From Branchiostoma floridae (Eukaryota > Chordata > Leptocardii > Amphioxiformes > Branchiostomatidae): 64,000 bases of DNA. Of the stretch, positions 1,985 through 33,215 are shown one piece after another. The translations under genes were made by a program, and so were the position numbers. The stretch spans positions 25,121,049-25,185,048 of the forward strand of contig NC_049982.1 of assembly GCF_000003815.2 (NCBI RefSeq). The letters run 5' to 3'. Position 1 is the first letter of the stretch. Each line of letters begins with the position of its first letter. Under the pieces are notes generated by a model, which was not told the origin of the DNA, did not search any database, and was given only the letters and a program-made list of their open reading frames with translations.

Positions 1985-2237
1985 TCAAACACACTTGGAG
2001 CCATGGCTGCAAGATCCGCGGTCATAGTTCCCTCCCTTACAACCGCCGTGTTCGCGTCCTCCGCCAGACGACTTTCCACCCTTGTGCCGCGGACCCCGTG
2101 TTGTAATTCGCGGACCGCCTGTCTCTGGCCCTGCCTCTGGTACCGCCGGACTTGATACCTTGAGCCCCAGAGACCTTCTTAGTAATAGTAGTAGTAACCG
2201 TTACTGTGACTCCTCCATCTTTTCCATTGCCTGCCAT
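1985..2237 (-). pseudogene. Micro-gene A: AQG-module peptide, frameshifted
   Basis: An ATG at 2237 in a good start context opens MAGNGKDGG, then a Thr/Val stretch and two AQG modules: SGAQGIKSGG ... NYNTGSAAQG, followed by KSSGGG ... GNYDRGSCSHGSKCV and a stop at 1985. The second module is in another frame. One extra base near the AAGGGTGGAAAG stretch (about 2065-2075) breaks the frame, and the length of 253 bases is not a multiple of three. Compared with neighbours B and C, the membrane segment is absent and the tail ends at KCV instead of KCVIL, so the prenylation box is lost. It is either a decaying copy or carries an assembly error; a small intron cannot be excluded. Confidence 0.6.
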
Positions 2238-2999
2238 TCTTTCCTTTTGGTTTTTGTGGTATGGATACACTGAGAATCTGAGCTTGTGTTTCTCGAGTGA
2301 ATTTTCCTCAGAGTCTACTGTTACCTTGGACAGAGAGAAACACGATACCCAAAAATGGGGATTACCATTGACAAGCCCAGGGGTAATTTGCAGTCACGGA
2401 CAAACATTTCAGAGTTATTAAATATTATCTAGATTTGTTTTCATAAACAATTCTTGTGTCATTTAATTTGTTTCATATTTATGTAATTTGTTTCATACTT
2501 ATGTCATTTGCTTCATACTTATCAAAATAGTATTAACGTTAGGTAGGCACTGCGATGTGATATTGCGTAACTCCGGATCCCCTCAAATATATTCTTTCGA
2601 ACGAAACATTATTAGAATATGCACTGATTAAAAGAGTCGTTTTTGAGAATTGAACACTTAGTTTTATTTTCTTCGATATCAGAATCATTTTGACAAGTGT
2701 AAAAACAGGAATTTTTGCGATACAGTATTTGGATGACGTGGCCTTTGCAAGAAAATTCTATAGCACGCGGCCATCTTGTTCCTACCGTCTTGTCAGACTT
2801 CCTAATTTGAAGTGTATGTTAACGTCATGTAATCGAACGAATTTTGTTTGCTAACATTCTTTTAAGACCCAAAAAATCTGTAAAGACTTGCATCGTAGAA
2901 AGGCTCGTAAAAGACTAGTTCCTGTAAACGGTTGGGAGCTTTGGAGTAGGTGTGTTACTTTGTATGCAGGTTAACACACAAAAGCACCATGCATTCACT

Positions 3000-3870
3000 G
3001 GTACTGCAAAACTTCTTTCAGTCTGCCTTGTACATTTGTTATAATAATCCTTAACAAATATGGAAATGGACTACACAAGGAACTGTTTACTTTTCTGGTA
3101 ATTCGACGATTGGATAAAACTGGTCTGAGTAAAGCTAGGAGTAAAGCAAAAAACATAAGTTGATNNNNNNNNNNNNNNNNNNNNNNNNNNNNNNNNNNNN
3201 NNNNNNNNNNNNNNNNNNNNNNNNNNNNNNNNNNNNNNNNNNNNNNNNNNNNNNNNNNNNNNNNNNNNNNNNNNNGGAAGATTTCCATGCCAAAAGTTAT
3301 TTCTTTCTTCACAACAAAACTCGCAGATACACCCACACATGCCTATGTTGCAAATATGAAAACTACACTATTCAATTATAGCGATTCTTATATCAGCAAA
3401 AGCAGGTCATATTGTGATTTATTCAGACTCACTTAAAGTCGTCATTATATATGGTCTCCTGATTAGAAAAAGAAATGGTACTATTGACTGTGCCAAGGTA
3501 TAATCGACGTTAGTAGAACTGAACATGTGCTTAATATCTGACAAAAGAGCACACACAACACTTCATATTAAGCTTTGAGACTTGGACATAGAGGAGGCTT
3601 GTACAAATGTTTCTTAAGTTCTCTAGTTGTTGTTTGTAGACTGATCCCACGATATAGCCATCTTGATGAGAACTCCGTTGTCTTTAAAGCAAGTTTATGA
3701 TTGCAGTTTGTCCATTCCTTGTCGATAAAGCAGGTGCTTTGCCCAATCCATATGTGCCCCTCTGTTTTGTCGTTGCCCCCATTTTGTCCAAGCCCCGCTG
3801 TTGTAGCGCGCCCGTTTAGTCCCAGTATGTTGTGGTTGGAGTAGAAAACCGCACAGCTTTGCCAGCACAC
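3000..3870. repeat. Duplicated flank, copy 2 (3' flank of gene B)
   Basis: Second copy of the segment described at 724-1984, diverged by substitutions and small indels and interrupted by a run of Ns. It shows that A and B arose as one tandem duplication of gene plus flank. No coding exon is seen. Confidence 0.72.
3165..3275. other. Assembly gap (111 Ns)
   Basis: A run of 111 undetermined bases inside the duplicated flank. The gap probably results from the assembler's difficulty with the tandem duplication. Confidence 0.99.
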
Positions 3871-4136
3871 CATATCTGCTATCTACATAGCCTGAAAAAC
3901 ATAAATCATAAAGATCAATATCATTTTCAAGTAACAACTATTACCATTAAGATTATTTTGGGGCAATGAGCGTTTGTTGGATACCTCTTATAGACGCTAT
4001 TGGAGCAACCCTACTGTTTGCCATTTTTGTGTTAGTATATTTTACAATGCATAAGCTCAGCTTTTTCTTGTAAATTATACTCACAAGGAAAGAGACATAT
4101 ACAAGAATGTCGAATCACCATTTGTGTTAGAATGCT

Positions 4137-4322
4137 TTACAAGATGACACATTTAGAGCCCTGGCTGCACGACCCGCGAGTATAGTTTCCGTCACTGCAC
4201 CCTCCACTTCCACCGCCGGACGATTTGCAGGCTTGTACGGTGCAAACGATAATAATAACAACAACCACAACAGCGGCAACCATTATCGCAATGGTCCACC
4301 CAAGACCAATTGCTGCGACCAT
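4137..4322 (-). CDS. Micro-gene B: single-pass membrane peptide with CVIL CaaX tail
   Basis: An intronless frame of 61 codons. Residues 1-30 are almost wholly hydrophobic (IAIMVAAVVVVVIIIV), a strong transmembrane segment. A hydrophilic tail follows: ACKSSGGGSGGCSDG, then NYTRGSCSQGSKCVIL. The C-terminal CVIL fits a CaaX box; X = Leu is the class preferred by geranylgeranyltransferase I, which implies a cytosolic C terminus and fits the Lys/Arg residues after the membrane segment. The start was chosen by alignment with gene C, whose ATG lies at the same place after TTTGAAA; an in-frame ATG at 4400 would add 26 residues. The flank from 4490 to 4740 is similar to 5130-5420 upstream of C. I recognise no named family; the function is unknown. 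Confidence 0.68.
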   Translation of the reverse strand: MVAAIGLGWTIAIMVAAVVVVVIIIVCTVQACKSSGGGSGGCSDGNYTRGSCSQGSKCVIL

Positions 4323-4807
4323 ACTTTCAAACATTGTCGTCAGAATAGAAAAGAATTGCAACGTCTCAAACTTTGTCCAGTTTCTCAAAAGCTTCTCCAA
4401 GTCCAGTCGAAGAAGAAGTGCGCCTTTTCAGATTGCAACATCACCTTTTATTCATAGTTTGGCGGGATTCCCCGAGAAGCTCTTACATGTTATCATGGCA
4501 TTGGTCGACTGCTGCATTACATCATTGGAACACATTTTTAGCCAATGAACTCATTACAAAGTCTACATATTGGTTAGGAAACTAAAGATTTTTAAAAGAA
4601 AACTTTCAAGTAGACGGCAATGGCACCATATTTGACTAGAACTTTTTTATTTTTAAATTACCCAGAATCTAGAATTGAATGATCTACTCAGAAACAATGT
4701 CCAGATATGGTAGGCCAGAATGACTTTATCCACTCTATCTATCCGCAAAGTTCAAATTGGTAAATGAGAAAAAAAAGTTTAAATTACAATGTATTTCCGT
4801 GGCTTCT

Positions 4808-4966
4808 TCAAAGGATGACACACTTGGTCCCCTGGCTACCAGACCCACGGGTGTAGTTTCCGTTACCGGAGTCACCCTCACCGCCCGACGACTTGCACCC
4901 TTGAGCAATGATAACGAAGATAATGAATACTGCAAACACAATGAGTGCGATTTGGTAATCTTCCAT
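4808..4966 (-). CDS. Micro-gene C: single-pass membrane peptide with CVIL CaaX tail
   Basis: An intronless frame of 52 codons. MEDYQ is followed by a hydrophobic segment (residues 6-20, IALIVFAVFIIFVII), then AQGCKSSGG and the tail NYTRGSGSQGTKCVIL. The last four residues form a CaaX box of the geranylgeranyl type. The AQG ... GSGSQGTK part is the clearest example of the module that also begins genes D, E and F. Membrane segment plus C-terminal lipid suggests a small protein lying on the inner face of a membrane. It is a tandem duplicate of B: the coding tail, the region before the ATG and the flank further upstream (5130-5420) all correspond. Agreement of two diverged copies on start, tail and CVIL supports real coding. 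Function unknown. Confidence 0.72.
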   Translation of the reverse strand: MEDYQIALIVFAVFIIFVIIAQGCKSSGGEGDSGNGNYTRGSGSQGTKCVIL

Positions 4967-5429
4967 GATTTCAAATTACTTTTTTCTTTCGAAGAAAAAA
5001 GCAGTGCGACGTCCCTAAGTGTGCTCTTCAAGCTTCCTTTGTCAAAGGATGAAACGTCGTACGTTTCTGGCTGCCTTTAGGTCATTTTCTTTGCCTGGGT
5101 AATCCCCAAAAGAACTTACATGGTACTTGTAACCATTTCATTGGTCGACTGTTGCTTCACATCATTTCCACACATTCTTGAACGATAGAATCATTATTCA
5201 CACTGGCTGCCAAAACTAAAGAAAACTGTCCCCTTTTCAAAACTTCTAAGTAGACAAAAGTACTTATATGTATGACAACATTGTTTCCTTTCATTCTTAG
5301 ATATTGAATGTAGAACCAATAATTTATGAAAAAAACTTTAAGTGAGATTTTCTTTCCAAATGCAGAAATAATATGCAAGTCCGAAAACAGTACGCCAGAA
5401 TAAGTGAATCCTTGATATGCAATACCCAT

Positions 5430-8400
5430 TATTTGTGAGCGCTACAAGTCACACTGTGTGGCAAATATGGCCGCCCCAATGTATGCACTAAACTGTCAGA
5501 GATACAATGTGCCTGCAACAGAGTGTGTCTTATTGGCGGTAATATGCCCATGCAAACCATTCACCATGTATAAGTACACACCCATATGGCCGTGTTTTCA
5601 CCAAATATGTTTGTCTCTTCTCATTTACAATGTCTGAAAGTTGCTATTCCATTGGTATTTAGTATGTAACGTTATATAATGAAACACATTTATCAGCAAA
5701 ACATTCATTCCGTATATGTGCCGCATACGTACGTCAATGGCCGTTTCGTACTTTTAACGTATACGTTAATGTCCTTACGTTGATGGCCAAAAACGAGATT
5801 CACTGGATAACATTACATGAAAAGCTGCCATGGCCATTCTCAAAAAAAGGGGGATAACTTACGCTCGTATGTGCCTAGAGCTCTACTATACTGTTCACTG
5901 ATTATCTATCCTAAATGCTGTATGCCATAAGTTATCTGGATTCGTATGTATTGAAAACACAACAAAAAATACACCAACAATCGACGAGATCATAATTCTT
6001 TTAATAGTTCTATACTTGACAAGTTACATTAAAAAATTCGATAGCTTCATTTTGAAGACACGAATTACTTAGCCCAGCCGAGAGCCCTACTTATGCCCCA
6101 CGCCGTGTAACAATAACACTGCTCGACAGCTTGTTCCATGATCCAGTTCAGACTGTATTATTTACACGTTCTTTACTCGACAGGTACACTTGGCCCTTCG
6201 CTAGCAGCCAATTTGACGTCTCTTCTGTACTATTTGGATTATATTCCCATCGGAAAGCAGCCTGGAAATTGTGCACGACTGATTCAGAGCGTCTAAATCT
6301 TCGAAGAGATTTCAACGTTTGGTAAGTTCCATTTTTGTTTCGTACCATGTCAGGTGTATTTCCTAACTTCTTTACTCCCCACCATTCCCCCAGCTGTTAT
6401 CGGTCAATACTTGCTACACTTAACACCAAGGTTCGTCACATCATTTACGAATTCTCTGTATCAAAATAGAAGGTATAAACGTTAGCAAAGAACCAGCACT
6501 GCCTAGTCAGAACGGGCAATAAATGAAACACGGGCGTCTAGTTGTAATCATTCTTTTAGTATAATGTGCAGGTCGTTTTGCTCAGGGGGAAGCTTGTTAT
6601 TTGAAAACGGGTATGTCATAGATATTGTGTTCAAATTCTTCAATTTGTAACGTAATTTGGTAAGGTAAGGCTTTTGTTAACTTCAGGTGAATTTTCTACG
6701 CAAATATGGTAGGTTTTATGATGATCTCGAGCGATATAGTGGGATAATTTTAGGTTAGAAGATCGTCTGTACGCTGTGTGACACCCACTCCCGGGGTGAG
6801 GCCATTTTGTCGGGGGCCTGACAAGGTCTTTCACACATGAACTGTGTTGCGTAGGTCTACCATAGCAACCTTGACTCTTTTGTTGGTCATTTTGACGTAA
6901 AATTGTGTCCATTGCTTATGGTGTTCTATGTGGGTCTCGGGTGTTCTCGTACATTTTTGTTTCGTTGCGACTAGCATAGCGACACTGTGATATTTCTTCA
7001 TTTAGGCGGAAAACCCCAGACCTCATCTTGCCCTAGCTTTGTTTATGTCTGACATGTATTCAAATGAGCTATAACCAAGGTACAGCAGCTTTGCTACGAC
7101 CATAAATCCTAGTGTAAACCAAACGAGGTTATGTCGGATAGGTGTTGTGTCATTAATTTCACAATGTCGTCAAGTGAAATTTCTCAAGTTCTGAGATGCA
7201 ACAATACACGTCAATGACATGTTCTATAGACCACGCAGACCTTCAGTGTTCTATCTACTCGTATCGTAAGGAAATCGCTTTCTTTTTACTGAGAAAATAG
7301 TTTTCATTTTGAGTACAATGTGTATTTCTTGTCAGTCCCTAGTCCTTCACTCAAATATCTAGTACGTGTCCTTCAAGGGGCCAACACCTTAGGTGATTTG
7401 TCTGAAACGAATTTATTCTGCTAAACGAGAATTAGAGAAACATTTCTCGATTTTCTTCATCTAAAATGTGGGTTATAAACCATATCTAGCCTATATTTTA
7501 ATGTTTAGACTTCCAGATTTATTGTTTTTTTGTTTATTTAGTGTAGTAATAGCGTCGGTTTGGGTGCGTCCGGTTTCGAAGGCCCCCTTTCAAAGACGGG
7601 GTCGACTGTAAGGGTACGCTTGTAGCCAAGCATCGCTTTACAACATGCCTTTGTTGTTAGGTATTCAGGTACCCTCCTTTTGATTGATGACCCAAATAGC
7701 ATATCAATGAGTCTACCAACATGTCAACAAATATCTAATATATATAGGAGAAAATCCGCGCAAAAAATTACAAATTTGAAGGACGAAAAATCAAGATGTG
7801 TGTTGATGTATGAGTAGAACATTAACGTCGAATATGATATTGGGTCAGTTGCTAGTACTGACCAGGTGAGATTTTGATCCTTAAGTTTTGTTGAAGGTGA
7901 ACCGTTTTCAAAGAGAGGTCAAGACACCCTTTCTGTTGCTATGAGACCTTTTTTTATCAAGACAAAGACTTGAGAGGTGTCAGCTGATTGATGTCCTTGG
8001 AATGTTTGGATATAGCGCACCTGTACAGAGACTTGTATATCAGGCTGGGGCCCAGAAAAAGGGGTTTTTTACTCCCGTCTGCAAGTCGGAGAGCGCTTAG
8101 AAACCATCCACTATACAGTTTTAGTAGCTTTGTTTGAACTTGTATGCATGATAAACCATTTGATATGTCGTATTTGAAAATACTGGCTATTATCTGGATA
8201 TGTTTTGGGTGTAAATTTAGTCTTTTCGATCGTCTTTCTCTATAGGAAAGGTGGAAAAAATTGCTGAGAGAGATATACAAGCTACTAAATACTACAAGCA
8301 GATTTAAGTTGTTTCACAGGCCTTATTGATTATTGTTAATGATAATTTGTAATATCATGTAGATATGATATAGGATTATCTTCATGTAATTCAATACTGA

Positions 8401-9880
8401 TAATTTTCGTTTTTACTTTTTCTTGCCATGTAAAAACAGAATCTGATGTAGGTCATTATCTGTTAACGTATGACGACAATGATTTAGCAAATATATATGA
8501 TAGTCTCTGAAAATAAAGTTATTGTTTTTAGTATGTGTTTTCATTGTATTATGAAATTATGTTTGTCGCTGATACATTTTGAACACGAAGAAATGGCAAT
8601 CTTTTTATCTCAGATCAATTAATACCCCTGACGAAAACATAAAAAAGCACTGAAACATACGAAAAAACTATGAATAAGGTCGTATTTTGCCGTATACAAT
8701 TTTACAGATACTGCATCAATATATTTTCCATATTAACAAAACACAGTATATACCATCTTTAGTTAAAACATATCAAGCCCTAAACACATGCTTGTGTGTT
8801 GAATCTGATATGAAATTATTAGCTATATCGGTGTAAACTACACGTAGTTACAATGGTTAAATTATGCCATACACAAGTTTCAACAATTCCAGTGTTTCCA
8901 TGACAACTGGTGATTATTGGGATGGCAATTATCTCTGATTTCTTATTATTTCACAAACATTTTAAATGATACTGCAGACAGATAGGCAATGTTGTGTACT
9001 TCAATGGGATCTAAACTTCTGCGGCGTGCCTCCCGCTGAATTCGTCCCATTCCAATGTCAATCATATGTTAAGGGGGTTAGAAAGAGAACTTTTTTTCTG
9101 ATTTTGTTCGTGTCTTGTGCTAGCAAAGTCTTTTTTTCAAAAACAGTGTGTCTTAATGGCTATTTTTTTTTACCGAAAGGGGTCTATCTGTTCCAAACAG
9201 TCTGTCTTGTCAAAAATTCAAGGGGAGCATGGAAACAGCATGGAACAGCGCAGAGCAACTACGATCACGTGGGTTGGGGGTCAAAATTAAGGCTTCTGAT
9301 TGGTCAACTTTCACCTAGGTGGTGTTATGTATCGTCGTTGTACCATTTTGTCAACATAACATGACAGCTAGACTGTAACTTGATTAATGGTTATTCCTCT
9401 CGAAACCTTGCTGTATTTGGGAATTTGGGGAAACCGCATATGCATCTAACGTTAAAACTAGATTTTTTGTCCATTTCTTCCTTTTGTAATTTCAAAATGT
9501 TCGCACGCATACGTCTAATATATGCGTTTGGTATATATATACTCTGTATTGCTCTGTTAGAAAAAAGACACTAAAACAAACACTTGTAAAGAGGATACAA
9601 AGGGTGTATTGTATGTGACAGACAGACATGTTGAAGGAAGTATTAACGTTACAGACAAATTGCAAGAAAAACAAGGGACAGCGTTTTTACTGATTACAGA
9701 AGTGTGGCTGTAGTATTACAGTCATACAAGTAGCTTTCTATATGACTATGATCTTTAGACGCACGTATACTCTTGAGGCTTTTCTCTCCCTCTGATTTGT
9801 AACTATGCACAGGTAGAAATGGATCATGTGCATAGTTACAAATCAGAGGGAGTATTTCTACATAAAACGTTACATTTAAA
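5430..9880. other. Gene-poor stretch
   Basis: About 4.4 kb of AT-rich DNA in which I see no convincing exon. The only hint is an open stretch at 6131-6325 on the plus strand that ends in a plausible donor (TTTGGTAAGTT), but its product resembles nothing I know. Short open frames elsewhere have no splice signals or recognisable motifs. Confidence 0.55.
9786..9852. repeat. Perfect 25-base inverted repeat (hairpin)
   Basis: Bases 9786-9810 (beginning CTCCCTCTGATTTGTAAC) are the exact reverse complement of 9828-9852, with a 17-base loop. No equivalent hairpin is seen at the related flank of gene E. It may be a small foldback insertion or an inverted duplication. Confidence 0.9.
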
Positions 9881-10745
9881 TGCAAAAAAAGTGTGCTATT
9901 CTGTGACTTGCCAACCTGGAGAAACTGTTCACGGAGTACACATTGTACATGTAGTATTCACCCCTTTATTGTTGTAGCCTGTACATGTAGCTTTCACCTT
10001 TCTGTCGTACTAATATGAACTCTCTTCCATCCTATTATGTCACAATTTATACGGAAGATAGAAATGTTGGAGAAAATATTGTAAGAGCGTAAAGCTTTTC
10101 ACTGATATCAATATCTAGTAAAGTAGTTTTACAGTTGATGGAATTCGACAGGACTATATAGGCTATACCTTTGACGTATAAATTGTCTACAGGTATACAA
10201 TCCCACTCTGACATATTAACTTAAATACACAGATAGAAGTAAGCATACAACACACTGGGACTCAGAAATGCCATATATACTATCATATAGAGCGATAGTA
10301 AAGTAAGACATAAAGCACCAAACATACCGAAATCTATTTTGGGTTGCTAGTACAGCGTGCTATTGCTTTTTAACACCGCTTACTCAAATCTGAATAATTG
10401 AAGGATTATTCATGTTAGTTTTGATTCCATTTTCTTGGTATCAACGTTAGCTATTTAGGAAAACTGTGGTTTCAATCGGTATCTTGTATAGGAAAAGCCA
10501 GTATGAACTTATAATGTAGTTTGTTTACACATGGAAACAAGCAAAGAATGGAAACAACCATGGAAAAAAGCAAATCATTATTGTAATACAGCGGTCAACA
10601 GAGCAGTGCAATATAAATGGTAAATTAGCAGACCTTTTTTAATACACATTTGTGTCTATTCTATGCAATCCACGCAAGCTACATGTCTGATTTCGCTATC
10701 TCTAAGAGGAAACAGGTCTGTTGTATGTTGTGTCATGCCGTTGGC

Positions 10746-13099
10746 TTACACAGCCACAGCCGTAGATGGCTGCACATGGAACATAAAGTTGTTCACTTTC
10801 ATCAGGGCTTTGGCGTACCCGTGGATACCAACTTTGGCCACCTTCTTCTCTTTGCCGCCGATTCCCAGGGCTGACTTAAGCCAGTACTTTAGACGGAGTG
10901 GCCAGAAAGCTATGTGAGAGAGCTCGTGGTCAAAGTTGGCATAACACGAGGCCGCGATGCCGTCCGCCATGATGGTTCCTTCCGTTGTAAGTGGCGCGAG
11001 GTATCCGCATAACTCGACCTCTGAGACATCGAGCACCTTGGCGGGAACCACTTTCCCGCTTTTTTCGTCGACAAGGAAGACGAACATGCCCTCTTTCACG
11101 TTCCTGGCAAAGATAGGGCTCTCTAAAGATGACAATAATACAGTGTTAGTGACTTTCGACGCTCATAGCACTTATAGCAACAATGAGAAAGAACCGCCAT
11201 TTTGTGCCCGAAGAGCGAGATCATCTCAACTACTGTGTCTTGCGTAGAAGTCAAACGAAGCAAACTACCTATTGTAAAATCTATGAATGAAAACCTACCG
11301 AGGCGTTCTTGTGGGTTCTTGGTAGCATATATCAGATGGTCGAGTGTGAGGCAAACTGGCCCGTTCTTCCCCTCCACGTTGATCTGCTGGAAGATATTCT
11401 TCTTGTCTGGTTCGCGGTCCAGCATTGCCATGATCGGACGATAGGCCAGACTTCTATCGGACGTGAATACTTGGACCCAGTCTCCGAGCTTCAGATCCTG
11501 CATTGCCCGGGTGCTTCCATCAATAAGATGCACACTCGTCTGGCCATGAAAACAGCCTGGAAATACAATAACAGTAATGTTCAGACGAAGAGTGAAAACA
11601 GGTAGATTTTCTTCGTCTACGCACTTCGAATTCGAAAGAATAGGGAGCTGCTTGGGGTACAAAATGCATGTTGTGTGAAAAATCATATCTACCGGGACAA
11701 CAATCTCCTCCACCGGAACTCTTGAGGCCCTGTGGTGCCATTTTATAGACAGTGAAATCGAGAAAAAGATCGGAGAACGTCTTCCTAAACCGAACACGAC
11801 CTAAAGTCACGTGTCTTGTGTGTGTGATCGATGCTGTTTCGTTGTGTTGGCCCATATGAATGACGTAACAAGAAAGCTCGCTACATTCTTTCGACGTGAC
11901 GATATTTTGAATTTCGTTCATCTAGTCGCAAAAATTACCCAACAAAATCCTAAAAACTTCAACAGATAATATTTTACAGTCTATGGTTATACGTAAACTT
12001 CCGAAGCCTAGAAATCCAGAGAGATATTTTGTTTTCGTAAGCTTCAATTGGCGCTAAGAATTTTTTCAAATGTACTAGGTAAATCATATCTAGTGCTACG
12101 TACAGCAACCGCTGCTTCCTCCACCGCAACTCTTGAGGCATTGTGGTGCCATTTTGAAGGCAAAATAGTAAAAAGATTGGATCTCAACAGCGCCTAACGG
12201 TGCGTGCCTTGCGTTCCGTTCGAAACTGTTTTGTTATGTTTGGCGCAGTCTGAATGGCATCATAAATGGCACGCCCCTTTCTTTGTGTGGAAGAATTCAT
12301 TTCAACTCTGACCTAAAATTGACAGGTCCTACAATGTTTTGTTGTACTCAAGTCTGTAGTTGTTTTGCTTTCGTCTGTTGTAACCAACACTACGCCCATC
12401 CCTCAAAACCAATAATACAAAAAGGAAACCAAGTGTATGCTTCATAAAATGCTAAAATTTCTTTGCACCATATAAAAAATAAACTTACCACTACTCGGTT
12501 CTTGGTAGTTGAACGCGTTCTCTCGAGGCTGGTATGGAGTGTATCTTTCTGAAATGGAAACAGATACAACGATGTAAAAGAAATGGACTGGACACAAATA
12601 CTGAAGACCTGCGTCTAGCAAGATGCTTTGCAAACTAAACGTCTTGGAGGGCTAGACTTGTTTTTCTGTCCAGTGTGCAAATTGTTTTAGCTCGATATAG
12701 GTCTGTTTTTAGATGTGCATAACAATGGTGTAAGGAATTCTGCACCATTTTTGTGACAGGAATTTTTTCACAAAAAGACCACGTGTAAGTATAGCCCTTT
12801 AGCCTCCCCCCAAAGTACCGGAGTTGGGCGTGTAGAAGCCATTTGTGAAGAAGGTTCATTTAAATGCGCGCTATATTTTCATATACGTGTCGATGAAAGT
12901 GGGACAAGTCTGCATGAAGGTAGTCTTAAGATGTCACACTACTGTTATAGATTGTTCTTCTTTTTAATTTATGAATATTATCAAAAGTACCTTGTGCTCC
13001 GTACGGATACCCCTGTGCTGTACTCCCAAGGGAACTGTTTTCCTCGGGAACTATGATCCTGTATTGCTCACTTCTTGCAGATTTGTTTCCCTGTGCCAT
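10746..13099 (-). CDS. Gene D: Hedgehog-type Hint/Hog domain protein with MAQG leader
   Basis: Exons on the minus strand: 13099-12991, 12548-12489, 11556-11299 and 11122-10746. All junctions are GT-AG and phase 1, giving 267 aa. Residues 1-57 are a hydrophilic leader (MAQGNKSARSEQ ... GSTAQGYPYGAQ, then a Tyr/Gln/Pro-rich exon) with no signal peptide. The rest is a Hint domain: GCFHGQTSVHLIDGS with the catalytic Cys at 58, LTLDHLIYATKNPQE with the TxxH histidine, MADGIAASCYANF with the second conserved Cys, then SHIAFWPLRL and KVGIHGYAKAL. This last part corresponds to the sterol-recognition end of hedgehog proteins. In hedgehog such a domain cuts before its first Cys and joins cholesterol to the new C terminus. 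Here the released part would be the leader. There is no Hedge domain. Two further first exons (11741-11693, 12152-12104) can replace the leader. Cytosolic action and activity are inferred. Confidence 0.82.
11693..11741 (-). CDS. Alternative first exon a of gene D (MAPQ leader)
   Basis: A 49-base exon with ATG in a strong context (AAAATGGCACC). It encodes MAPQGLKSSGGGDCCP plus the first base of a Gly codon, then a donor GTAGAT. Spliced in phase 1 to 11556 it puts Gly directly before the catalytic Cys of the Hint domain, making a 227-aa protein with a 17-residue leader. QGLKSSGGG matches the half-module QGCKSSGG of gene C. RNA evidence is lacking. Confidence 0.6.
12104..12152 (-). CDS. Alternative first exon b of gene D (MAPQ leader)
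   Basis: It has exactly the same length (49 bases) and phase as exon a at 11693-11741 and is clearly its duplicate. It encodes MAPQCLKSCGGGSSGC plus a T, with donor GTACGT. Joined to 11556 the split codon becomes TGC, so the residue before the catalytic Cys would be Cys instead of Gly. Cys-rich and Gly-rich; no signal peptide. Confidence 0.52.
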
Positions 13100-15025
13100 T
13101 TTAATGACGATTCAAGTTGTGCTACTCTTCTTGCCTTTTTTTAACTAGTTTTAAGCGGAAAAACCCTGTGACTAATACCAGTGCTCATGCGCAGAAATAA
13201 ACCACCAATGTTGTTCTGCGGTGGGTGGGTGTTTGATATACAGAACAGCTTTGTTGACACCGTGGGGAGGGGGGCATGCCACATGGCATTTTTTATTAGC
13301 CTGCCAAATACCTTGGCTCATTTTCATTTCTCCGTGTTCAGTAATTGTAAGTAGTAGTATATTAGTATCACGTTTAATGCTGATCATCATCATATCTTGC
13401 CGCTCCAAATCCCAATCGAATAGCGGGCCGCCTCCTTGGCCTCTCTCAGGTCACTGTCTGAGCAGCTAATGCTGATAAACTGAATAACAAAGAAATTAAA
13501 GGCCAGTTTCGATTTGTCTTTAAGGTCCCACATGGCTGAATTGTGTGGAATATGTGTGGAAAGGTCATTGAAAAATTTCTCTGGTTTCAGTTTACACCTC
13601 TGTCTACAGAAGTTCCGTCTTTTATCCATGCACAAGCGCTCATTGGTGTCTTTTTAACTGCAATTAGTGAGATGTTCGCATTCTCGTTGCTACGTAACTC
13701 TGAAAATGATTGATTACTCTGAGCTATCAACAAGTATACATTTGCTACTGCAAGAATAGAATTACTAATTTGTTAATTGTCAGCAATATCAATACAAAAT
13801 AGCCCTTGCAGCATAATATTGTTTGAAGATATTATCCTTTACTCTCTACAATTCTTTTAAGTTATAAAATTCTCTTTCTCTTTATTTTTACGTAATATCG
13901 ATAGAAAATGAGCATCAAAGAACAACCCGGTATCTAACAAAGAAAGTTGTCTTAGGATAGTGGGTGTAATTTCAAGCTAGTGATATCTGTACCTGACTTT
14001 AACTTGAGATATAGTGATTCTCGAGTTAATTACACACGATTTGGACAAAATATGCCCCATTTTATATAAACCTTCGCATGAACATTATTTCAAAACGTGT
14101 TTTACGCTCATGTCCATTGTCCAGGGCACACGTGGGTACTCTTTATAGCTCTTTTCAAGAAAGACACAGTAACATGACAGGAGAAGCAAATATGTTTTAT
14201 TCCATGTAGCATACAGAAATATTTTCAGATAACAATTGTGGCATGCTAGATCAAAGTACAGAGGTTTGAAAAAAAATCCCAGTTTGTAGCATTGATGTAC
14301 TATTTCCACAGTACACTTAGATGTGCACAAGAAGTGTGTTATTCTATGACTTGGTGAAACTGTTCAAATTTACCGTAGTACTTGCTCTTTTATGGCTGTT
14401 TCACCTTTCTGTTTTACCAATATGTAGTCTCTTACATCCTATTATGTCACAAACTATATGGAAATAAGCAGATAGAAATGTTGAAGAAAATGTAACAACT
14501 GAAGATAGTTATTACGTTTCAGTGATGGCAACATTAGTAAAGTAGTTTTACAGTTATGGTATTCTATAGGACTATAGGCTGTGCCTGAGAGGTCTTGTCT
14601 ACAGATATAAGCCCACTCTGATATGTTAACTTCGACACACAAATAGAAGTAAACACCAAACAAACTGGTATTCAGAAATGACATATTATCATATTAGCTA
14701 CATGGAGCCATGTAATCGCAAAGTAAGACATAGAGTACCAAACATACCGAAACCTACTTTGGATTGCTAGTACAACGTCATTATTTTTTAACACCGCTTA
14801 CTGAGTTTACCCTGATCTGAATAATTGAGGAACTATTCTTTGTAAGTTTTGAATCCACTTTCTTTGTTTCAACGTTACATATATAGCAAAACTTTAGTTT
14901 TAACCGGTATCTTGTATAGGACAGACCCAGTATCAACTTATAATGTTACAGTAGTTTGTTAACATGTAATAACCATGGGAAAAAGCAATCTGGTTGGTGT
15001 ACATGGTTATTGCCATGCTTCTAGC

Positions 15026-17001
15026 TTACACAGCCATAGCTGGCTGCACATGGAACAAAACGTTGTTCACTTTCATCAGGGCCTTCGCGTACCAGTGGAT
15101 ACCAACTTTGGTCACATCCTCTCCTTTCCCTCCGAACCCCAGAGTTGACATAACCCAGTACAGTAGACGGAGCGGCCAGAAAGCCATGTGAGAGAGGCCG
15201 TGGTCAAAGTCGGCATAACACGAGGCCGCCACACCGTCCGCCATGATAGTTCCTTCTTCAGTCAGAGGCGCGCAGTATCCTGTTGCTTCGACCTCCCGGA
15301 CCCCACGCACCTTGGCTGGGGCCACTTTCCCGCTTTCTTCGTCAGCCACGAAGACGAACATGCCCTCTTCCACGTTCTTGGCAAGAATAGGTGACTCTAA
15401 AAAATATGAGAATGTAGTTTGAGACTTTTATTTCCTATTGTAGGAAAAAAAAAGAAATAGAAATAACCGCCATTTTGTGGTGCAAGAGCGCATACGTATA
15501 TCCGTCTAGTTAACAACTGTATCTTGCGAACAAAACAACAAAAAAACTACCCCTATTGAAGATTCTTACAAAAAGAGCCTACCGAGGATTTCTTGTGGGT
15601 TCTTGGTAGCATATATCAGGTGGTCAGGGGTCAGGGAAATCGGCCCTTTTTCCCCGTCGATGTAGATTTGCAAGAACGTTGCGTTCTCGTCGGGCTCGAA
15701 GTGAAGCATGGCAAGGTATGGACTGTACGCGAGTCCGCCATCCTTCTTAACGACTTTCACCGAGTCTCCGGGCTTTAGATCCTTCATCGCGACTTTACTG
15801 CTGTCACGGAGCTGGACTTTGGTGTCAGCTTGGAAGCACCAATCTGTTGAAAAGAAACACAGTTTTTTGATCGAGTAAAGATTCTTCTTTTGTAAAATAA
15901 AATAAAAGGTAAAGACAAAAACCGTACGCAGAGTAATCGTACTGCATTTCAGCTCTACGTACTTCAAATAAGTCATTCTAATCTTTGCCAACTATTACAG
16001 ATGGAAGTATATATAGAGAGTACAGTAGTCATAGATAGATAGTTATAGATATATACAAGATTCGTCACTGCCACGACTCCTGTTTCCCTGTGGCGCCATT
16101 TTCGCAGACTGTGAATTCGACAAAAGAAATTGCAGAGAGAAATTGCTCAGTGTGGTTTTATATTTCTACGCGCAAGTGCGCTTGCGTGTCCTGCCACCGA
16201 AACTACTAAACAGCCACGTCGGCGAATCAGTTTGTAACAGTAACGCAGAAAGCCTGGTCGTTACAGTAAATATCTAAGTCACTTTCACAAAGTTAACTTT
16301 TTAGGAAAGCTTTAAAAAATAATGCCTATATTAGTTTAATTCACGTCTTTAGGTAAAAGACAGTTACAGAAAGTTTGGCTCCAAACTGATCATGAGCTTC
16401 AAATAATGTTTATGATAGTTTGTGATAATAAATAGATCCCTTGCAAACTTACCGTCATTGCTACTGTGATAATTATAGCTGTGATGATATACAGGTTCTG
16501 AAATAGAAAATAAGACATGGATATTAATAATTGTCAAATAAGAATGGGCCGTAAACATTTCATTTTACAAAACATCAACAGCTTTAATTTCTAGAAGCCG
16601 TTTGCGTATATGTAGATTAAATTTGTACTGTAATCTATGTAGCACTTCGTTTGCATATATATGTAATGTGGTTCTGTGCTACGTGACCAAGTTAGGCATT
16701 ATTTACGAAAAAAGTTCACAGGTGAAAATCATTAGCCCAAATATTCCGAACAGCCCTCACAAAAGCTTTGCATAGAAGTCTGGATTAGATAGCCCTGAGT
16801 AGAGTATAATTTTACAGGGGCTCTTGATATGCAGGTATCTTTCCATATCCACGATATATTGGTTAACTCTGACGTACCTCTGCGTGGTGGCTTGTAGTAT
16901 CCCTGTACTCCTGGGCCTACGGAAAAGTTTTCTTCTTCGCTCTCGACCGCCACGACAACGTTGTCAAACTCATCACCATGTGATTTGGTCCCCTGTGCCA
17001 T
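15026..17001 (-). CDS. Gene E: Hedgehog-type Hint/Hog domain protein with MAQG leader
   Basis: Exons: 17001-16878, 16497-16453, 15843-15583 and 15396-15026, all joined in phase 1, giving 266 aa. The leader is MAQGTKSHGDEFDN, an acidic stretch, GPGVQGYYKPP, then a His/Tyr-rich exon (VYHHSYNYHSSND). The Hint part has WCFQADTKVQLRDSS, SLTPDHLIYATKNPQE (TxxH), MADGVAASCYADF, SHMAFWPLRL and KVGIHWYAKAL. GIHWY is the same motif found near the end of hedgehog proteins, showing descent from a hedgehog C-terminal half. All catalytic residues I can place are kept. The residue before the first Cys is Trp, where gene D (long form) and hedgehogs have Gly, so cleavage or sterol transfer may differ. No signal peptide is seen. 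Confidence 0.8.
16057..16099 (-). CDS. Alternative first exon of gene E (MAPQ leader)
   Basis: A 43-base exon that opens with ATGGCGCCACAGGG in a good context. It encodes MAPQGNRSRGSDES plus one base, then a donor GTATAT. Phase 1 joining to 15843 gives Tyr-Trp before the catalytic Cys and a 224-aa protein. It occupies the same place as exons a and b of gene D, so the alternative start predates the duplication of D and E. The donor is weaker than in D. Confidence 0.5.
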
Positions 17002-20000
17002 GTTTTCCCGATGTCGATGCGTACGTAGCTACACTAGGTTAGTCTGTTTCAACTTTTAAACTATGAAGACACTGCGGTCGGGACTAGTTTTAATGTGGGA
17101 AACCCCAGTTGATCATGCGCAGACTTAAAAGTTGGTCTTCTTTAGTGTCGCTTGACAGATAACGTCATTGTTGTTTGTCTCCAGAGCTGAGGGTGGATGT
17201 TCGCTGAAGGGAACAGCTTGCTATATACGGTGTTCGCTTGTACTACTTGGGGAGGGGGCATTATAGTATTCTGCAGTTTATATCACCAAGGAGTTTTTGT
17301 TTTCACACAAGTAAACTTAATATAATGAACTTGTCTATACTGATTCAATCATGTCACATTTGACATGATAATTATATTTCTCTTATCCGTAGCATTTTGT
17401 CCCGTAAGAGTATGTGTAGAGTACATATAGAGTATGTGAATACGAGCTATCGCTGTTGTTAATATCCGGGGTGTTCGACGGCTGGTGCCTACCAGGACGT
17501 CAGTAGATTGGATTGAAAATCCATATCTAAATTAGCAGATCAAATTACTGGTTAATATGTAAATCAACCTTTTGCTAAACACCTGCTTTTTGCCTACCAC
17601 TGCTTCAGCATGACATCGCGATCGTATACACAGGATAAAAAAACATACTTTGCTCATGAATATCGACTATTGATCTTATTGATTAAAGTTTTGATAAAGT
17701 TTTCATTTAGAGATCTAGACCTTGAATTTAACATGAACGATTATCATGTCATTTTTGTCAAATGTTATTTTAAGAGCCATATGCGTAGCCATCTCTTAGA
17801 ATCACTTCTTTCAGTGCAGTATATTATAACAAATTATAACCTTGGCTAGTACATGTTGTAACAGATTGTGAATTAGTAAAGCACTTCATAACATTTCGGG
17901 GTCAATAAGAAGATTTGAAGGACTCTATTATCGTGTATACGTTGATACCACAAATTATGAAAAACATCAAGGATTTTGAATTGATATATACAGTACAGCA
18001 GCTAAAAGAAAACCTTAGCCTTAACCAACGCGGAATATGTAAAATGGTTTTATTGATACAAGACGTCAGTATAACAAAGACAATGTGTTAACACACCCAA
18101 ACTCTGTGATCTTATATTACTTTAACACCAAACTACAACAAATAAGTACTAGACATAAACGTTAAAGGTACGTGTAACGCTGAGAAGATAAATCTGAAAT
18201 CAAACTTGTGATTTTGTATTTCAGAACTACCTCTCGCCTAGATATGGTATACTAAACACTTGATGCAAACCAAACCGATATAATCTTAACGCTAATTAAT
18301 TTAAACAACATATAATACCGTGTATAAAAAAGTGGAAAATTGAGAAGTGTTAAACAATGAATCAGAGAATATGCACGCAATAAAAAAATGATAAAACATT
18401 GGAAAGATAATTGAAGACTTAATGTGAGAAGTTGTCAAATTGTTATACAGACAGAAAAAGTATTCTTATCCATGTTAAACCTACTGGTATATTACTAAGA
18501 AACTAGTAACGTCACTCCATTCTTACAAAGGTTAAAAAGTATACTTAGTTTCTTCGTGACAATAGTCCTGTTGTTGCTTCTAACATATTCAGTAAAGACC
18601 TACTCTGTCACAAGTCTTGCACATTGATTAGCATATGCCCTAATATGTTTCATGTTTACAGAATAATAACAGTATAGGAGCGGACAAAACCATACTTTAT
18701 GCATTTTGTGATGTCAAAATAGTTTCAGAACATAATTTAACAATAATAGGTCATTGATTATATTGTGTTAACATGCTAGTCATAGACTTTCATCCTGCAT
18801 TGCATTACACATAGATAGCTCAGCTACAGGGTTGATATTTTTCAATCAGAAATATCTGAGAAGAACTGTACATACGTTATGTTACAGGCAATTACAATTA
18901 AAAACATAACAGCAACAATGAAGTACAGATGTAGAACTCTTTTTTTGTCTTTGAAGGTATTTATAGAGTCGAAGCTTTCTTGGCACAACCCAAATACACA
19001 GTCTGTGACTTTCGCAAGGTCCAGTACAAACTACAAAATATACATTTTATTTGGCACATTTGGGCTAAACATGTGTCGTAACTTGGCATTTATTCAGATT
19101 ATCAATGCTGGACTCTGCACACATGGGGTTAACGTTAGGTAATCATGTACATGTATACAATGGCCGGGATGGATCTGTCAACATCTTTTCTAATAACAAA
19201 TCAATCTTTTATGTCTTTACCTAAATGTTTTTGTGTCCAACCTTAAGAAGAAATAGTCAAATCTGCAGCGAGTGTGTTGAAATGTGTTGTAGCGCTATAT
19301 ATAGCTAGTTCACATTTATCTGCAGGGCTGACAATATTCGTTGTATTTAAAGTATAGTATTAATGAATATCAGTACTTTGAAAAAGGAAACAATTTGAAA
19401 CCGGTGCACTGTCCATAGACATAGATATACCAACATAAAATGCCCTTAAATACAGTGGATGTATATGAACTAACGTTACTGTAACAAGGAAATGTGAAAG
19501 ACACATTTATAAGAAAGTGAACGACACATATAAACATCATATTAAGAGTATTCCTGTAATGTGATGGTCCCAGCACAGGCTGTGGTAGAAGTTCACACCA
19601 CTCTGCATGTATCACTTGACCACGGGCGGCTACATCTATCCAAGCCTGTGGGCACAGAATGTAAAAAAAATGTCAAAGCAAGTCAAAGTCAATGCAGGTA
19701 CTAGTGATAAGAATCATTTATGGGTAGCTTATCAATGATGTGTGTGCCTCCGTTAGGCAGTTTGGTCACCCAATGGTTGGTGAATTTTGACATAAACGCT
19801 TCAGAAAAATTGTTAGACTAGAAAACTCCCAAGGTTGTGTGTTCGGCACCGTTTATTTCACTGAAAGATAATTTTTTTCTGGCAAAACAATGTACACTAC
19901 AACATGACAACACATTTACGTACCACGTCATTTCAAGACAATATTATTGAGCTAAAAAATAGAAATAGAAATAAACCGGCCCCTATAATCTTCAGTCAGA

Positions 20001-20504
20001 AGGTTTACTTATTGTTGTGTACACATGTTGGTTTGAAGTGGCTTTCATGTTGTTCAGTGTACACACGGAAATGTGATCTTGTATTGACTGATTTTTGGAC
20101 TGTCAACTGTCTGGACACTAATTATGAACCAGTGCTGTATTCACGACAATGTGCCTGCAAGTTTTGATTTAGTTAAGAATAATACAGATCGACATACTAT
20201 TATTTTTCATAGCGCAAAAATCTTATCCATTGTTAATTGTTGGAATGCAATGAAGGATAATTTGAACAGGGTTTAAAGCAGGAGTACGGTAAAATAAATT
20301 TCAAAAAGTTCTGATGTCTAGATATAATATTAATTTCGTGACACAGTCTACAATTTTTCTTAGAGTAACTATGCAGGTATTAATTTGATCAATACATTTT
20401 ATCCTTATTTGTTTCTGCAGGATTTGTGTGTCATCGTAGAAGGAAAACAAACTTTCGGGTGAATATCAGGGTACATAGGGTACCATGGGGTTACCCAAAA
20501 TCAA
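17002..20504. other. Gene-poor stretch between genes E and F
   Basis: About 3.5 kb, AT-rich. No exon can be supported except the weak candidate at 19550-19645. No clear inverted-repeat element is seen. Confidence 0.5.
19550..19645 (-). CDS. Possible orphan exon
   Basis: A strong acceptor (CATTTTTTTTACATTCTGTGCCCACAG) precedes an open stretch whose product reads AWIDVAARGQVIHAEW, then CELLPQPVLGPSHYR. Composition is protein-like and unlike the AT-rich surroundings. I find no clear donor after it, and I do not recognise the family. It could be a relic or an extra 3' exon of a longer form of gene F. Confidence 0.22.
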
Positions 20505-21447
20505 CTATCCGTACTTGATAATTGCAGCCTCGCTCTTTCCAAATCTGTTGACGGCCCGTATGTGCAGTTGCAGTACTTTGTTTTCCACGGTAACCGTTTC
20601 AGTGCTGCCATTAAGATTTCCCTCGTCAGTCTTTTCCCAGCCGCCGAACCACCCTTGCTGCTGGTAAAGCTCCACGTTGACTGAAGTGATGTCTTGACCA
20701 GTTGGGAGCTTCCAGTACACATCAACTTCTTGCTGCGACCGGGCTTCGTACCGCAAATTGTAGGGAGCCGACGGAACTGTGAATTTGAAGAAAAAAAATT
20801 TAAAAATGTTACATACATATATGGATTAAGCAAAACACGCGGAACATAATCTTTTCGACATTGTTAGAATTTTTCCCAGAAGGAAATGGAAATGTGCACG
20901 TGGCGCCATCGGTAAGGGTGGGTCGCGGTTTATTTGTCGTTTTCATTGCGAAAATTTGGATCATAAATAGCTGCTCCGATCCATGACCATGAGGTTTTCA
21001 ATAATCTGATTGAAACCTCCCTGGTATATTGTAGACAATACCTAAATGTAATATCTTTGAGCTTTATAATACATGTACAATCATTTCACGACACTGAATA
21101 GAATGAGCTGTTTCTACATTTTTTTTCTTGCACAATCTGTTGGCAACATTTTTCCAATGTAAAAGTTTGTTGAAGTAAGTTTTTCCGAAAGTTTTGAGGA
21201 AAGCCTTACGATACATTCTAGAAAACGTCTGTATGTTTGAGTACAAATATATATCTGGAAGATTACGATATTACAGTACTAGTTGAACATTTCCCCGTAG
21301 TTATCTTCTATATGTCCATGCTCTCGCCGTTGTAGTAAACTTACCTCCCTGGTGCTTAAAACCCTGCACCGTCGACCCGGTGGTTCGATTTGGATTGAAA
21401 TTCCCATTATTCCCTCCCGGACCACCGTATTTATACCCCTGTGCCAT
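20505..21447 (-). CDS. Gene F: MAQG leader fused to one fibronectin type III-like domain
   Basis: Two exons, 21447-21345 and 20776-20505, joined in phase 1, giving 124 aa. Exon 1 encodes a full AQG module: MAQGYKYGGPGGNNG, NFNPNRTTGSTVQGFKHQG. Exon 2 encodes one FN3-like beta-sandwich: VPSAPYNLRYEARS at the A/B strands, VDVYWKLP at strand B/C with the conserved Trp, VELYQQQGWFGGWEK, VLQLHIRAVNRFGKSE at the F/G strands, and then the stop. There is no signal peptide or membrane segment, so an intracellular adaptor-like or binding protein is possible. The ATG context (AACATGGCACAGGG) is identical in type to genes D and E. The same leader exon in front of an unrelated domain argues for exon shuffling. 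Confidence 0.72.
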
Positions 21448-32386: not shown

Positions 32387-33215
32387 AAAACAGCCCAAGA
32401 CGCACACGGCAGCCGTCTGTTCGCCATGAGTGGAAGGGAAGATTTCACCAACAAGGGCGCCACCAACCTGGACATCGCTACTCAAGGTGACGACAGGAAA
32501 TTTAAAGAAGCCTCAAGGAAGACTCAACCTCAGGGGTGCAAGAGTCATGGCGCAGAGATGTCTAAAGGTAATAAGGATAAGATGGTGCCCTGCTTTGTGA
32601 CCCCTTTTAATCCCACAGACAAAAATACGATGAACACCTGGGAGTTATGGCAACACTGCATCCCGACTGTCAATCACAATCAACAGTTTAACCAATGAGA
32701 GGATGGCAATTAGTGGGTGGACCAATCAGAGAGTGGCTGCAAGCTCGTCAAATATTTGCACTTTTAATTTTTTTCCATTTCTACTTTTTGACGAAGATGG
32801 GGCTAGGGTTGGCTATGAGATCCGCCTATTGAAAAAAATGCACACAGGCCCCGAAAAGTTTTCTTCCACTTGAAGTGAAAAAAAACAAGTTGTAAGTGGC
32901 GCCTGGACTGCATTGTTTGGGGCTGGGTTGAAAACGCATTGGAAATAATGACATTGAAAAACGGATAAACAACAAACTTTGTAGGAGGAATTGATTCCTT
33001 TTGAAAATTTCATCTTTTTCAGTCTCGCATTCATGCTATAGAATTGTTCTTTCTATAAAGTGTCTTACCTTGAAATGTAGACATAGAACTAGACACACGA
33101 ATTTAGATTACAGATCTGTTTACCATATAATTACATAGTATGTTTACTCGGTTTCTCTTCTACAGGGAGCTCTTCATCCAACCCGCCAGGTGGCGCTTCA
33201 ACAGGGAAGAAGTAG
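32387..33215 (+). CDS. Small gene with QGCKSHG motif (3' exons)
   Basis: Exon 32387-32567 has an acceptor TCTCACAG and a donor AAAG|GTAATA; exon 33166-33215 follows an acceptor TTCTCTTCTACAG. They join in phase 1 and end SSSNPPGGASTGKK then stop. An ATG at 32426 gives a 63-aa hydrophilic, Lys-rich protein: MSGREDFTNKG, ATQGDDRKFKEASRK, TQPQGCKSHGAEMSKG. The frame is open for 13 codons before that ATG to the acceptor, so an upstream exon may supply the true start. QGCKSHG matches QGTKSHG of gene E and QGCKSSG of gene C, suggesting a seventh, opposite-strand relative. A poly(A) signal AATAAA lies at 33502. Function unknown. Confidence 0.55.

What the first reader, a model, noticed from the sequence alone, without database searches (positions are those of the whole stretch)
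1985..21447. A shared ~30-residue 'AQG module' links six neighbouring genes with different downstream domains
Seen directly: AQGCKSSGG ... NYTRGSGSQGTK in gene C, AQGIKSGG ... NYNTGSAAQG in gene A, MAQGYKYGGPGG ... TTGSTVQGFK in gene F, MAQGNKS ... GSTAQGYPYG in gene D, MAQGTKSHG ... GPGVQGYYK in gene E, and a half copy (QACKSSGGG, GSCSQGSK) in B. The spacing of the two QG boxes is about 20-30 residues each time. The module sits at the C terminus before a CaaX box in B and C, and at the N terminus before a Hint domain (D, E) or FN3 domain (F). Junctions in D, E and F are all phase 1. I know of no described family with this pattern; it looks like a local, lineage-specific family grown by duplication and exon shuffling.
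Basis: partly seen in the sequence, partly recalled or inferred. Interest (0 to 1): 0.9.

Follow-up and report, generated by a model that had tools for sequence, protein, structure and literature searches.

The report
Lancelet cluster of membrane-anchored AQG peptides
A row of about a dozen small neighbouring genes in a lancelet share one short, unnamed protein module that is joined in some genes to a lipid-anchor signal and in others to the self-cutting, sterol-attaching half of a hedgehog protein, which suggests one peptide family with several ways of being fixed to membranes.

Summary
A profile of three copies (D/E/F) ranked other cluster genes as its five best held-out hits among 10,843 six-frame ORFs; 40 column-permuted profiles put 1 member into 200 top-five slots. 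Six more copies lie within 14.3 kb left of the window on the same strand: about 13 copies over 36 kb. Protein searches found no convincing copy elsewhere in the genome. Differences between copies fall mostly on third codon positions (24/32/78).

The module is a doubled box, roughly G-[ST]-x-x-Q-[GA]-x-K. Complete stand-alone copies have 47-75 residues; four members have Cys fourth from the end (three fit a strict CaaX), two of these after a hydrophobic helix. Two copies are first exons joined through a short linker exon, in phase 1, to a complete hedgehog-type Hog domain, with no signal peptide seen. D keeps every catalytic residue checked; E has Asp303-to-His, known from laboratory work. The "FN3" of F is below Pfam's cut-off.

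Best reading: cytosolic peptides brought to membranes by different lipids. Family: very likely real. Anchoring: inferred, about even odds. Transcripts and other lancelets were not testable.

The parts
1985..2237 (-). Gene A: ORF MAGNG... (2037-2237) with a two-box module, plus A2, a further copy in another frame (1985-2074) ending KCV-stop; 3' end degraded relative to B
   Evidence: A2 region homologous to the tail of B by blastn (2032..1035 vs 4190..3301), pS 0.79/pN 0.14
4137..4334 (-). Gene B: 65-aa protein, one hydrophobic helix, module with first box QACKSS, C-terminal CVIL
4808..4966 (-). Gene C: 52-aa protein, one hydrophobic helix, two-box module, C-terminal CVIL
12991..13099 (-). Gene D exon 1: AQG module, donor in phase 1
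12489..12548 (-). Gene D exon 2: 60-nt linker exon, phase 1 at both ends
   Evidence: splice signals only
10746..11556 (-). Gene D exons 3 and 4 (11299-11556, 10746-11122): complete Hog domain starting at Cys1, preceded by Gly
   Evidence: PF01079 160.8 bits, profile 10-211 of 213; the four PDB sequences matched are all hedgehog proteins
11693..11741 (-). Possible alternative first exon MAPQGLKSSGGGDCCP, phase-1 donor, in D's second intron
   Evidence: 81% identical to 12117-12181 over 69 nt and 82.5% to 16086-16125 over 40 nt that include about 14 nt after the ATG; donor by eye
12117..12152 (-). Second MAPQ copy, MAPQCLKSCGGG, same intron
16878..17001 (-). Gene E exon 1: AQG module, phase-1 donor
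16453..16497 (-). Gene E exon 2: 45-nt linker exon
   Evidence: splice signals only
16046..16099 (-). MAPQGNRSRG copy in E's second intron; frame from ATG to stop, exon end not determined
15026..15843 (-). Gene E exons 3 and 4 (15583-15843, 15026-15396): complete Hog domain, His at position 46
   Evidence: PF01079 165.7 bits
20505..21447 (-). Gene F: AQG exon (21345-21447) joined in phase 1 to an FN3-like exon (20505-20776)
   Evidence: fn3 below cut-off
32426..32698 (+). Probable 14th copy on the other strand (TQPQGCKSHG box)
   Evidence: best non-member ORF (E 0.046)

Best explanation
A tandem array of small protein genes, all on one strand, that grew by local duplication. The shared part is a 30-40-residue, low-complexity, probably disordered peptide with two boxes G-[ST]-x-x-Q-[GA]-x-K about 20-30 residues apart. 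Apart from B and C no member seen whole has a hydrophobic N-terminus, so I take the peptide to be cytosolic. What differs between members is how it is held at a membrane: by a CaaX tail that would be prenylated (B, C, H, perhaps G3), in B and C behind a hydrophobic helix that I read as a membrane anchor with the CaaX end in the cytosol; or by a hedgehog-type Hog domain (D, E) that would cut itself off at Cys1 and leave a sterol ester on the end of the 57-58-residue AQG peptide. Others (G0, G1, G2, I) stop at or soon after the second box and may be soluble. The module together with its start codon, and perhaps its promoter, behaves as a portable phase-1 first exon. Shown: homology of the modules, the array, a coding signature, the Hog domains and their catalytic residues. 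Inferred: splicing, prenylation, autoprocessing, sterol transfer, cytosolic location, and that anchoring is the common theme. The boxes themselves I take to be short binding motifs; their partner is unknown.
For: Module homology. Array beyond the window. No convincing copy elsewhere by protein search. Coding signature: 24/32/78 differences at codon positions 1/2/3 over 164 codons in 14 blocks; Hog D/E dN 0.22, dS 0.63 and B/C tails pN 0.17, pS 0.73. Hog completeness; Cys1, Asp46, TxxH and the Cys of SCYA in D, matching C258, D303, T326/H329 and C400 named in PMC9163320 (passages; C400 placed by counting along the alignment). Cys at -4 in 4 of 9 stand-alone members against 75 of 2,213 local ORFs, binomial 1.4e-4, or 1.9e-3 for 3 of 8 if the related pair B/C counts once. 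Phase-1 junctions with good splice sites in D, E, F. Octamer TGCGCATG upstream of D, E and F only, of 14 starts looked at.
Against: No transcript or protein evidence. Five of nine stand-alone members lack Cys at -4 (A, G0, G1, G2, I), G3's CDIM has Asp where CaaX boxes have an aliphatic residue, and F has neither CaaX nor Hog, so anchoring is not universal. The helix of B and C could instead be a signal peptide, which would put the module outside the cytosol; G3's start is withheld. E's residue before Cys1 is Trp, not the usual Gly, which may weaken cleavage. Hog proteins of nematodes and Hedgehog itself are secreted. PMC4967905 (abstract) warns that novel lancelet domain combinations are often gene-prediction errors. 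The TGCGCATG octamer alone is within chance. Two of the 14 blocks (G0/G1 a, H/I) show little or no excess of synonymous change.
Confidence: 0.5

Rival explanations
1. The lancelet counterpart of nematode hh-related genes: the AQG peptides are secreted matrix or signalling peptides, and an upstream signal-peptide exon was missed in D and E.
For: Nematodes have Hog proteins with novel N-terminal domains and dozens of stand-alone copies of those domains (PMC1636047, abstract and passages). The Hog of D/E is closer to this genome's Hedgehog Hog than to the AIG1-linked Hint. In F an AG after a pyrimidine-rich stretch lies between the in-frame stop and the ATG, so an upstream exon is possible there (by eye).
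Against: In D and E there is no AG between the upstream in-frame stop and the ATG, except that E's stop itself ends in AG (by eye); no hydrophobic N-terminus in D or E; CaaX tails in sister genes need the cytosol; no cysteine is conserved in the modules.
Confidence: 0.2
2. The boxes are crosslinking substrates: repeated Gln-Gly-x-Lys units serve as acceptor and donor for a transglutaminase, giving a membrane-attached crosslinked coat.
For: In 9 of 13 second boxes a Lys follows the Gln by three residues (Arg in H, Lys by four in E; none in D; A2 has His for Gln), in Gly/Ser-rich context (alignment).
Against: Resemblance recalled; no enzyme or assay tested; no Pfam hit above cut-off.
Confidence: 0.12
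3. The boxes are self-assembly (amyloid-type or RHIM-like) signalling motifs shared by neighbouring genes, so that stand-alone peptides seed or block the fused ones.
For: Two pseudo-repeats, 31-56% G/S/T/N/Q in stand-alone proteins and N-terminal peptides, attached as a short first exon to unlike domains in a gene cluster.
Against: No such family among the Pfam hits of ten proteins at E up to 10 (HMMER's filters drop most weak matches); boxes are lysine-rich and poor in the hydrophobic core such motifs need; recalled analogy only.
Confidence: 0.1
4. The modules are chance look-alikes in low-complexity ORFs, or a decayed repeat rather than genes.
For: Short, Gly/Ser-rich; A is degraded; some single-group profiles miss members (A/B/C profile ranks D 119th and G2 1647th); short AQG-box tandem repeats do occur elsewhere (L003).
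Against: Held-out and permutation tests, third-position excess, one-strand array.
Confidence: 0.04

Closest known systems
Nematode hh-related families (warthog, groundhog, ground-like, quahog)
   Same: A lineage-restricted N-terminal domain occurs both in front of a Hog domain and alone in many genes (PMC1636047; PMC2362128; abstract and passages)
   Different: Nematode products have signal peptides and conserved cysteines; here neither was seen in D/E, and some stand-alone copies carry CaaX tails
Hedgehog (Hog half)
   Same: Complete Hint+SRR; D has Cys1, Asp46, TxxH, Cys of SCYA
   Different: No Hedge domain, no signal peptide seen; about 30% identity to this genome's own Hedgehog Hog
AIG1(GIMAP)-Hint proteins of lancelets, snail and fungi
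   Same: Hint/Hog on a protein without signal peptide; one in this genome (L014); described in PMC12373286 (passage), PMC7053062 (passages) and for GmGIN1 in PMC2362128 (passage)
   Different: N-terminal partner is a GTPase; L011 and L014 have SxxH and His at 46; the Hint match of L014 ends at profile position 184 of 213, D/E at 211
Laboratory variant Hedgehog D303H
   Same: Gene E has His at the same position
   Different: E is natural; its substrate is unknown. The variant keeps activity and accepts more sterols (PMC9163320 section 11)

Membership tests
Hog/Hint domain (PF01079) | Profile score above curated cut-off | tested here: met
   D 160.8, E 165.7 bits, cut-off 29.7
Hog/Hint domain (PF01079) | Catalytic Cys1, TxxH, Cys of SCYA | tested here: met
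   both D and E
Cholesterol-transferring Hog | General base Asp303 (position 46) | tested here: inconclusive
   Asp in D; His in E, a swap that kept activity in the fly protein
Cholesterol-transferring Hog | Sterol recognition region after Hint | tested here: met
   phmmer alignment to Drosophila Hedgehog residues 258-463 (D) and 258-462 (E), past the end of the Hint structure 1at0
Hedgehog | Hedge (signalling) domain | tested here: not met
   no Pfam hit before the Hint in D or E at E up to 0.01
Nematode hh-related families | Signal peptide | tested here: not met
   D and E: best 10-residue Kyte-Doolittle means in the first 40 residues 0.33 and 1.01; no dedicated predictor available
Nematode hh-related families | Conserved cysteines in the N-terminal domain | tested here: not met
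   alignment of 13 modules
CaaX proteins | Cys four from the end followed by two aliphatic-type residues | tested here: met
   B and C CVIL, H CSLL; G3 CDIM does not fit strictly
CaaX proteins | Actual prenylation | not testable with these tools
   needs biochemistry
Fibronectin type III (PF00041) | Profile score above cut-off (gene F) | tested here: not met
   18.3 bits against 25
Any described family for the AQG module | Pfam or PDB match | tested here: not met
   ten proteins against Pfam at E up to 10: ten hits in three proteins, all below cut-off, mostly to the hydrophobic helices of B and C; modules of D and F at E up to 1: none; nine-copy profile against PDB at E up to 1: none

The most novel reading that the evidence does not exclude
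One cytosolic peptide family that is fixed to membranes by alternative C-terminal lipids, prenyl in some genes and a sterol ester made by an attached, never-secreted Hog domain in others, with paralogues D (Asp46) and E (His46) possibly using different sterols. That would be sterol-modification of intracellular proteins by a Hog domain, and a natural case of the Asp-to-His base swap.
Probability: 0.27. Interest if true: 0.8.

Novelty: new variant of a known kind. Interest (0 to 1): 0.55.

Why it matters
Hog-catalysed sterol attachment is known for secreted Hedgehog; here complete Hog domains sit on short peptides without a visible signal peptide whose sister genes carry prenylation-type tails. 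If confirmed it would give a compact, testable case of one module switching lipid anchors by exon capture, and a natural D303H Hog enzyme. It also shows that short genes in a chordate genome can be recognised by their neighbours where family libraries see nothing.

Tried and rejected
Copies elsewhere: pattern searches of the own genome for AQG/MAQG gave 6 and 8 matches, of which 1 and 2 are in the window; reversed-pattern controls gave 1 and 3. The other 11 (L002-L006, L019, L020, L023-L026) were translated and scanned: no two-box regex hit; the best profile scores are L023, L025 and L026, near-identical copies of one repeat (E 0.019-0.026 with the six-copy profile, 0.47-0.49 with the 13-copy one, among 1,645 ORFs), which match the MAQG start only; rejected. 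L003 holds three tandem AQGSKGTG units of 28 residues but no profile or regex hit; a different repeat. AQG module near other Hint loci: profile on L010, L011, L014, L015, L018 found nothing below E 1.3. FN3-like exon: only itself in the genome at E up to 0.1. Promoter motif: one octamer shared by D, E and F; I estimate 0.3 such octamers by chance, so only suggestive. ORFs at 43.8 kb and -40 kb and -24.5 kb that scored in some profiles were read and dropped as not two-box. Structure prediction was not run: the spliced proteins are not letter-for-letter in the DNA and only two Hog sequences of the window qualify. Single-group profiles miss some members: A/B/C alone ranks D 119, E 21, G0 1331, G2 1647; D/E/F alone ranks B 68; G/H/I alone ranks C 45, E 25, F 31. 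In the six-copy profile G2 fell below the best decoy, and two of the ten non-training ORFs above the best decoy are not members (43.8 kb, -40 kb). A genome search with the Hog of D did not complete.
Full report
Where it is. The window is C4:25121049-25185048 of a 513 Mb assembly in 431 contigs. Size and content fit Branchiostoma floridae, which is my inference from memory, not a database label.

Check of the observation. All six copies are on the minus strand as described. I fetched 100 kb on either side and translated all 264 kb. A regex for two boxes, written after seeing the window copies, hit five of the six (not B) and two more places, at about -12.9 and -11.2 kb, again on the minus strand; 20 Markov shuffles of the 264 kb gave none. 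A profile of the six reported copies was run against 10,843 ORFs and their 10,843 reversed decoys. Sixteen forward ORFs scored above the best decoy: the six used for training and ten others. Of the ten, eight belong to the story: G3, A2, H, G4, I, G1, G0 and the MAPQG start at 11.7 kb; two do not. G2 fell below the best decoy and was found by regex.

Fair test of the link between groups. A profile made only from D, E and F put C, A, G1, I and G2 at ranks 4 to 8, directly after its own three training sequences, with one decoy level with G2; counted among forward ORFs that is 5 of the 5 best and 8 of the 12 best held-out hits, and 40 column-permuted versions of the same profile put 1 member into 200 top-five slots. 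A profile from only the six outside copies ranks A 7th and D 9th; one from A, B and C ranks F 5th, I 6th and G1 7th. Some members are missed by single-group profiles (B by D/E/F; D, E, G0 and G2 by A/B/C; C, E and F by the outside six), as expected for a short divergent module. With all 13 copies the members score E 3e-7 or better, the next ORF is G4 at 0.046 and the best decoy 4, but that profile was trained on them.

Extent. The 13 copies are, from left to right on the + strand: G0 (-14320..-14162), G1 (-12880..), G2 (-11267..), H (-5703..-5473), I (-3079..-2927), G3 (from -1652; its start lies in a withheld stretch), A2 and A, B, C, D, E, F. All are on the minus strand. Protein searches of the whole genome with C, G0, H and D found only cluster members, apart from chance-level hits on other contigs at E 4.5 and 1.3. 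Each query found only its nearest relatives even inside the cluster, and these searches score only the best candidates, so weak relatives elsewhere cannot be excluded.

Are they genes? In 14 aligned blocks of 164 codons, differences at codon positions 1, 2 and 3 number 24, 32 and 78. The blocks were picked by protein similarity, which favours this outcome; but the B/C and A2/B blocks lie wholly or mostly inside DNA matches found by blastn without regard to frame, and they show pS 0.72-0.80 against pN 0.10-0.15 in the coding frame, while in the other two frames pS is 0 to 0.24 and pN 0.23 to 0.38. G0/G1 (block a) and H/I show little or no such contrast. Hog domains of D and E: dS 0.63, dN 0.22; their N-terminal peptides: pS 0.71, pN 0.40. 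A is probably degraded: its A2 part is in another frame and its CaaX is cut short.

Anatomy. The 13-copy alignment shows a doubled box, G-[ST]-x-x-Q-[GA]-x-K, the first usually followed by S. Complete stand-alone proteins are 47 to 75 residues. B and C have one very hydrophobic helix (19-residue Kyte-Doolittle means 3.43 and 2.94) followed by the module and CVIL; acidic residues before and lysine after the helix suggest a cytosolic C-terminus (positive-inside rule, recalled), though a signal peptide is not excluded. H ends CSLL and G3 CDIM, the latter not a strict CaaX. Cys at position -4 occurs in 75 of 2,213 local ORFs of 45 codons or more (15 strict CaaX), and in 4 of 9 stand-alone members, 3 of them strict (binomial for 4 of 9: 1.4e-4; 3 of 8 when B and C count as one: 1.9e-3).

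D and E. Exon models with standard splice sites give D: MAQG exon, a 60-nt linker exon, and two exons of Hog; E the same with a 45-nt linker; all junctions up to Cys1 are phase 1. D reads ...EPSSG|CF, E ...NDDW|CF. The whole Hog is present: PF01079 160.8 and 165.7 bits; phmmer to Drosophila Hedgehog 258-463, beyond the Hint into the sterol recognition region. D has Cys1, Asp46, TxxH at 70-73 and the Cys of SCYA; at these places E differs only by His46. A review of Hedgehog processing names C258, D303, TxxH and C400 as key residues and reports that D303H keeps activity and widens sterol use (PMC9163320, passages and section 11). Neither D nor E starts with a strongly hydrophobic stretch. MAPQ-type starts lie in the second intron of both genes; the D and E ones are 82.5% identical over 40 nt around the start codon.

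F. The AQG exon joins in phase 1 to one FN3-like exon. Pfam fn3 scores 18.3 bits, below its cut-off of 25, and nothing else in the genome resembles it at E up to 0.1.

History. A and B units are a roughly 2.2 kb tandem duplication, D and E a 4.3 kb one. D/E identity is 74% over the Hog exons with the intron between them and 76% in the 3' flank, but the MAQG exons give no blastn match at E 1e-3, which suggests that the module evolves faster. A third, decayed D-like Hog stands on contig C146 with part of D's 3' flank (L018); its wider neighbourhood could not be fetched.

Interpretation. The array works like the nematode hh-related families in one respect: a lineage-restricted N-terminal module occurs with and without Hog (PMC1636047, abstract and passages). 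It is not a member: no signal peptide seen in D/E and no conserved cysteines. Hog on non-secreted proteins has precedent in AIG1-Hint proteins, including one in this genome and those in PMC12373286 (passage). The most economical common theme is membrane anchoring of a cytosolic low-complexity peptide by prenyl or by Hog-attached sterol, with the boxes as binding motifs. This is inference; members without any anchor (G0, G1, G2, I, F) speak for a theme with exceptions.

Literature. Full-text searches for amphioxus or Branchiostoma with Hint or Hog terms, for Hog with cholesterol and autoprocessing, for Hog with prenylation and cholesterol (none), for amphioxus orphan/CAAX/tandem genes, for lancelet exon shuffling (20 of 167 listed) and for Hog with signal peptide or cytosolic (10 of 933 listed) showed no description of this family in the listings and passages that I saw; I read no paper whole, and the library holds only open-licence papers. 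PMC4967905 (outline and abstract) cautions that novel lancelet architectures may be gene-prediction errors, which applies to the exon joins here until transcripts are checked.

On rereading the calls I changed: the joining of D/E to Hog (through a linker exon), the CaaX count (three strict, one doubtful), the topology caveat for B and C, the possible acceptor before F, the count of Gln/Lys spacing, the coordinates of E's MAPQ copy, and added. The odds stand: these points were small against what they rest on.

Noticed in passing
L014 (C397), L011 (C19): Hint loci of this genome with SxxH and His at the position of fly D303; L014 is an AIG1(GIMAP) GTPase joined to Hint. With gene E, His at this place occurs in two Hint groups of one genome.
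   Followed up: partly
L018 (contig C146:73259-73501): A decayed third copy of the D-type Hog with a piece of D's 3' flank, perhaps a haplotype or an older duplicate.
   Followed up: partly
window 11706-11751 and 12117-12162: Two MAPQ start copies, 87% identical over 46 nt, inside one intron of gene D, suggesting a repeated promoter-exon unit.
   Followed up: partly
upstream of 13099, 17001 and 21447, minus strand: TGCGCATG shared by D, E and F about 95-125 nt before the ATG, in E and F 28 nt before TTAAAA (spacing counted by eye).
   Followed up: partly
L003 1213-1533, minus strand (C9:24.32 Mb): Tandem repeat of a 28-residue unit ending LAQGSKGTG; unrelated to the module by profile and regex.
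   Followed up: partly
window 24000-29100, minus strand: ORFs that look like a TRP-type channel with ankyrin repeats (by eye).
   Followed up: no
window 23602-23748: Array of GGGTTA, the animal telomere repeat unit, inside the chromosome.
   Followed up: no
window 63375-63944, minus strand: ORF that resembles the last part of a seven-helix receptor (by eye).
   Followed up: no
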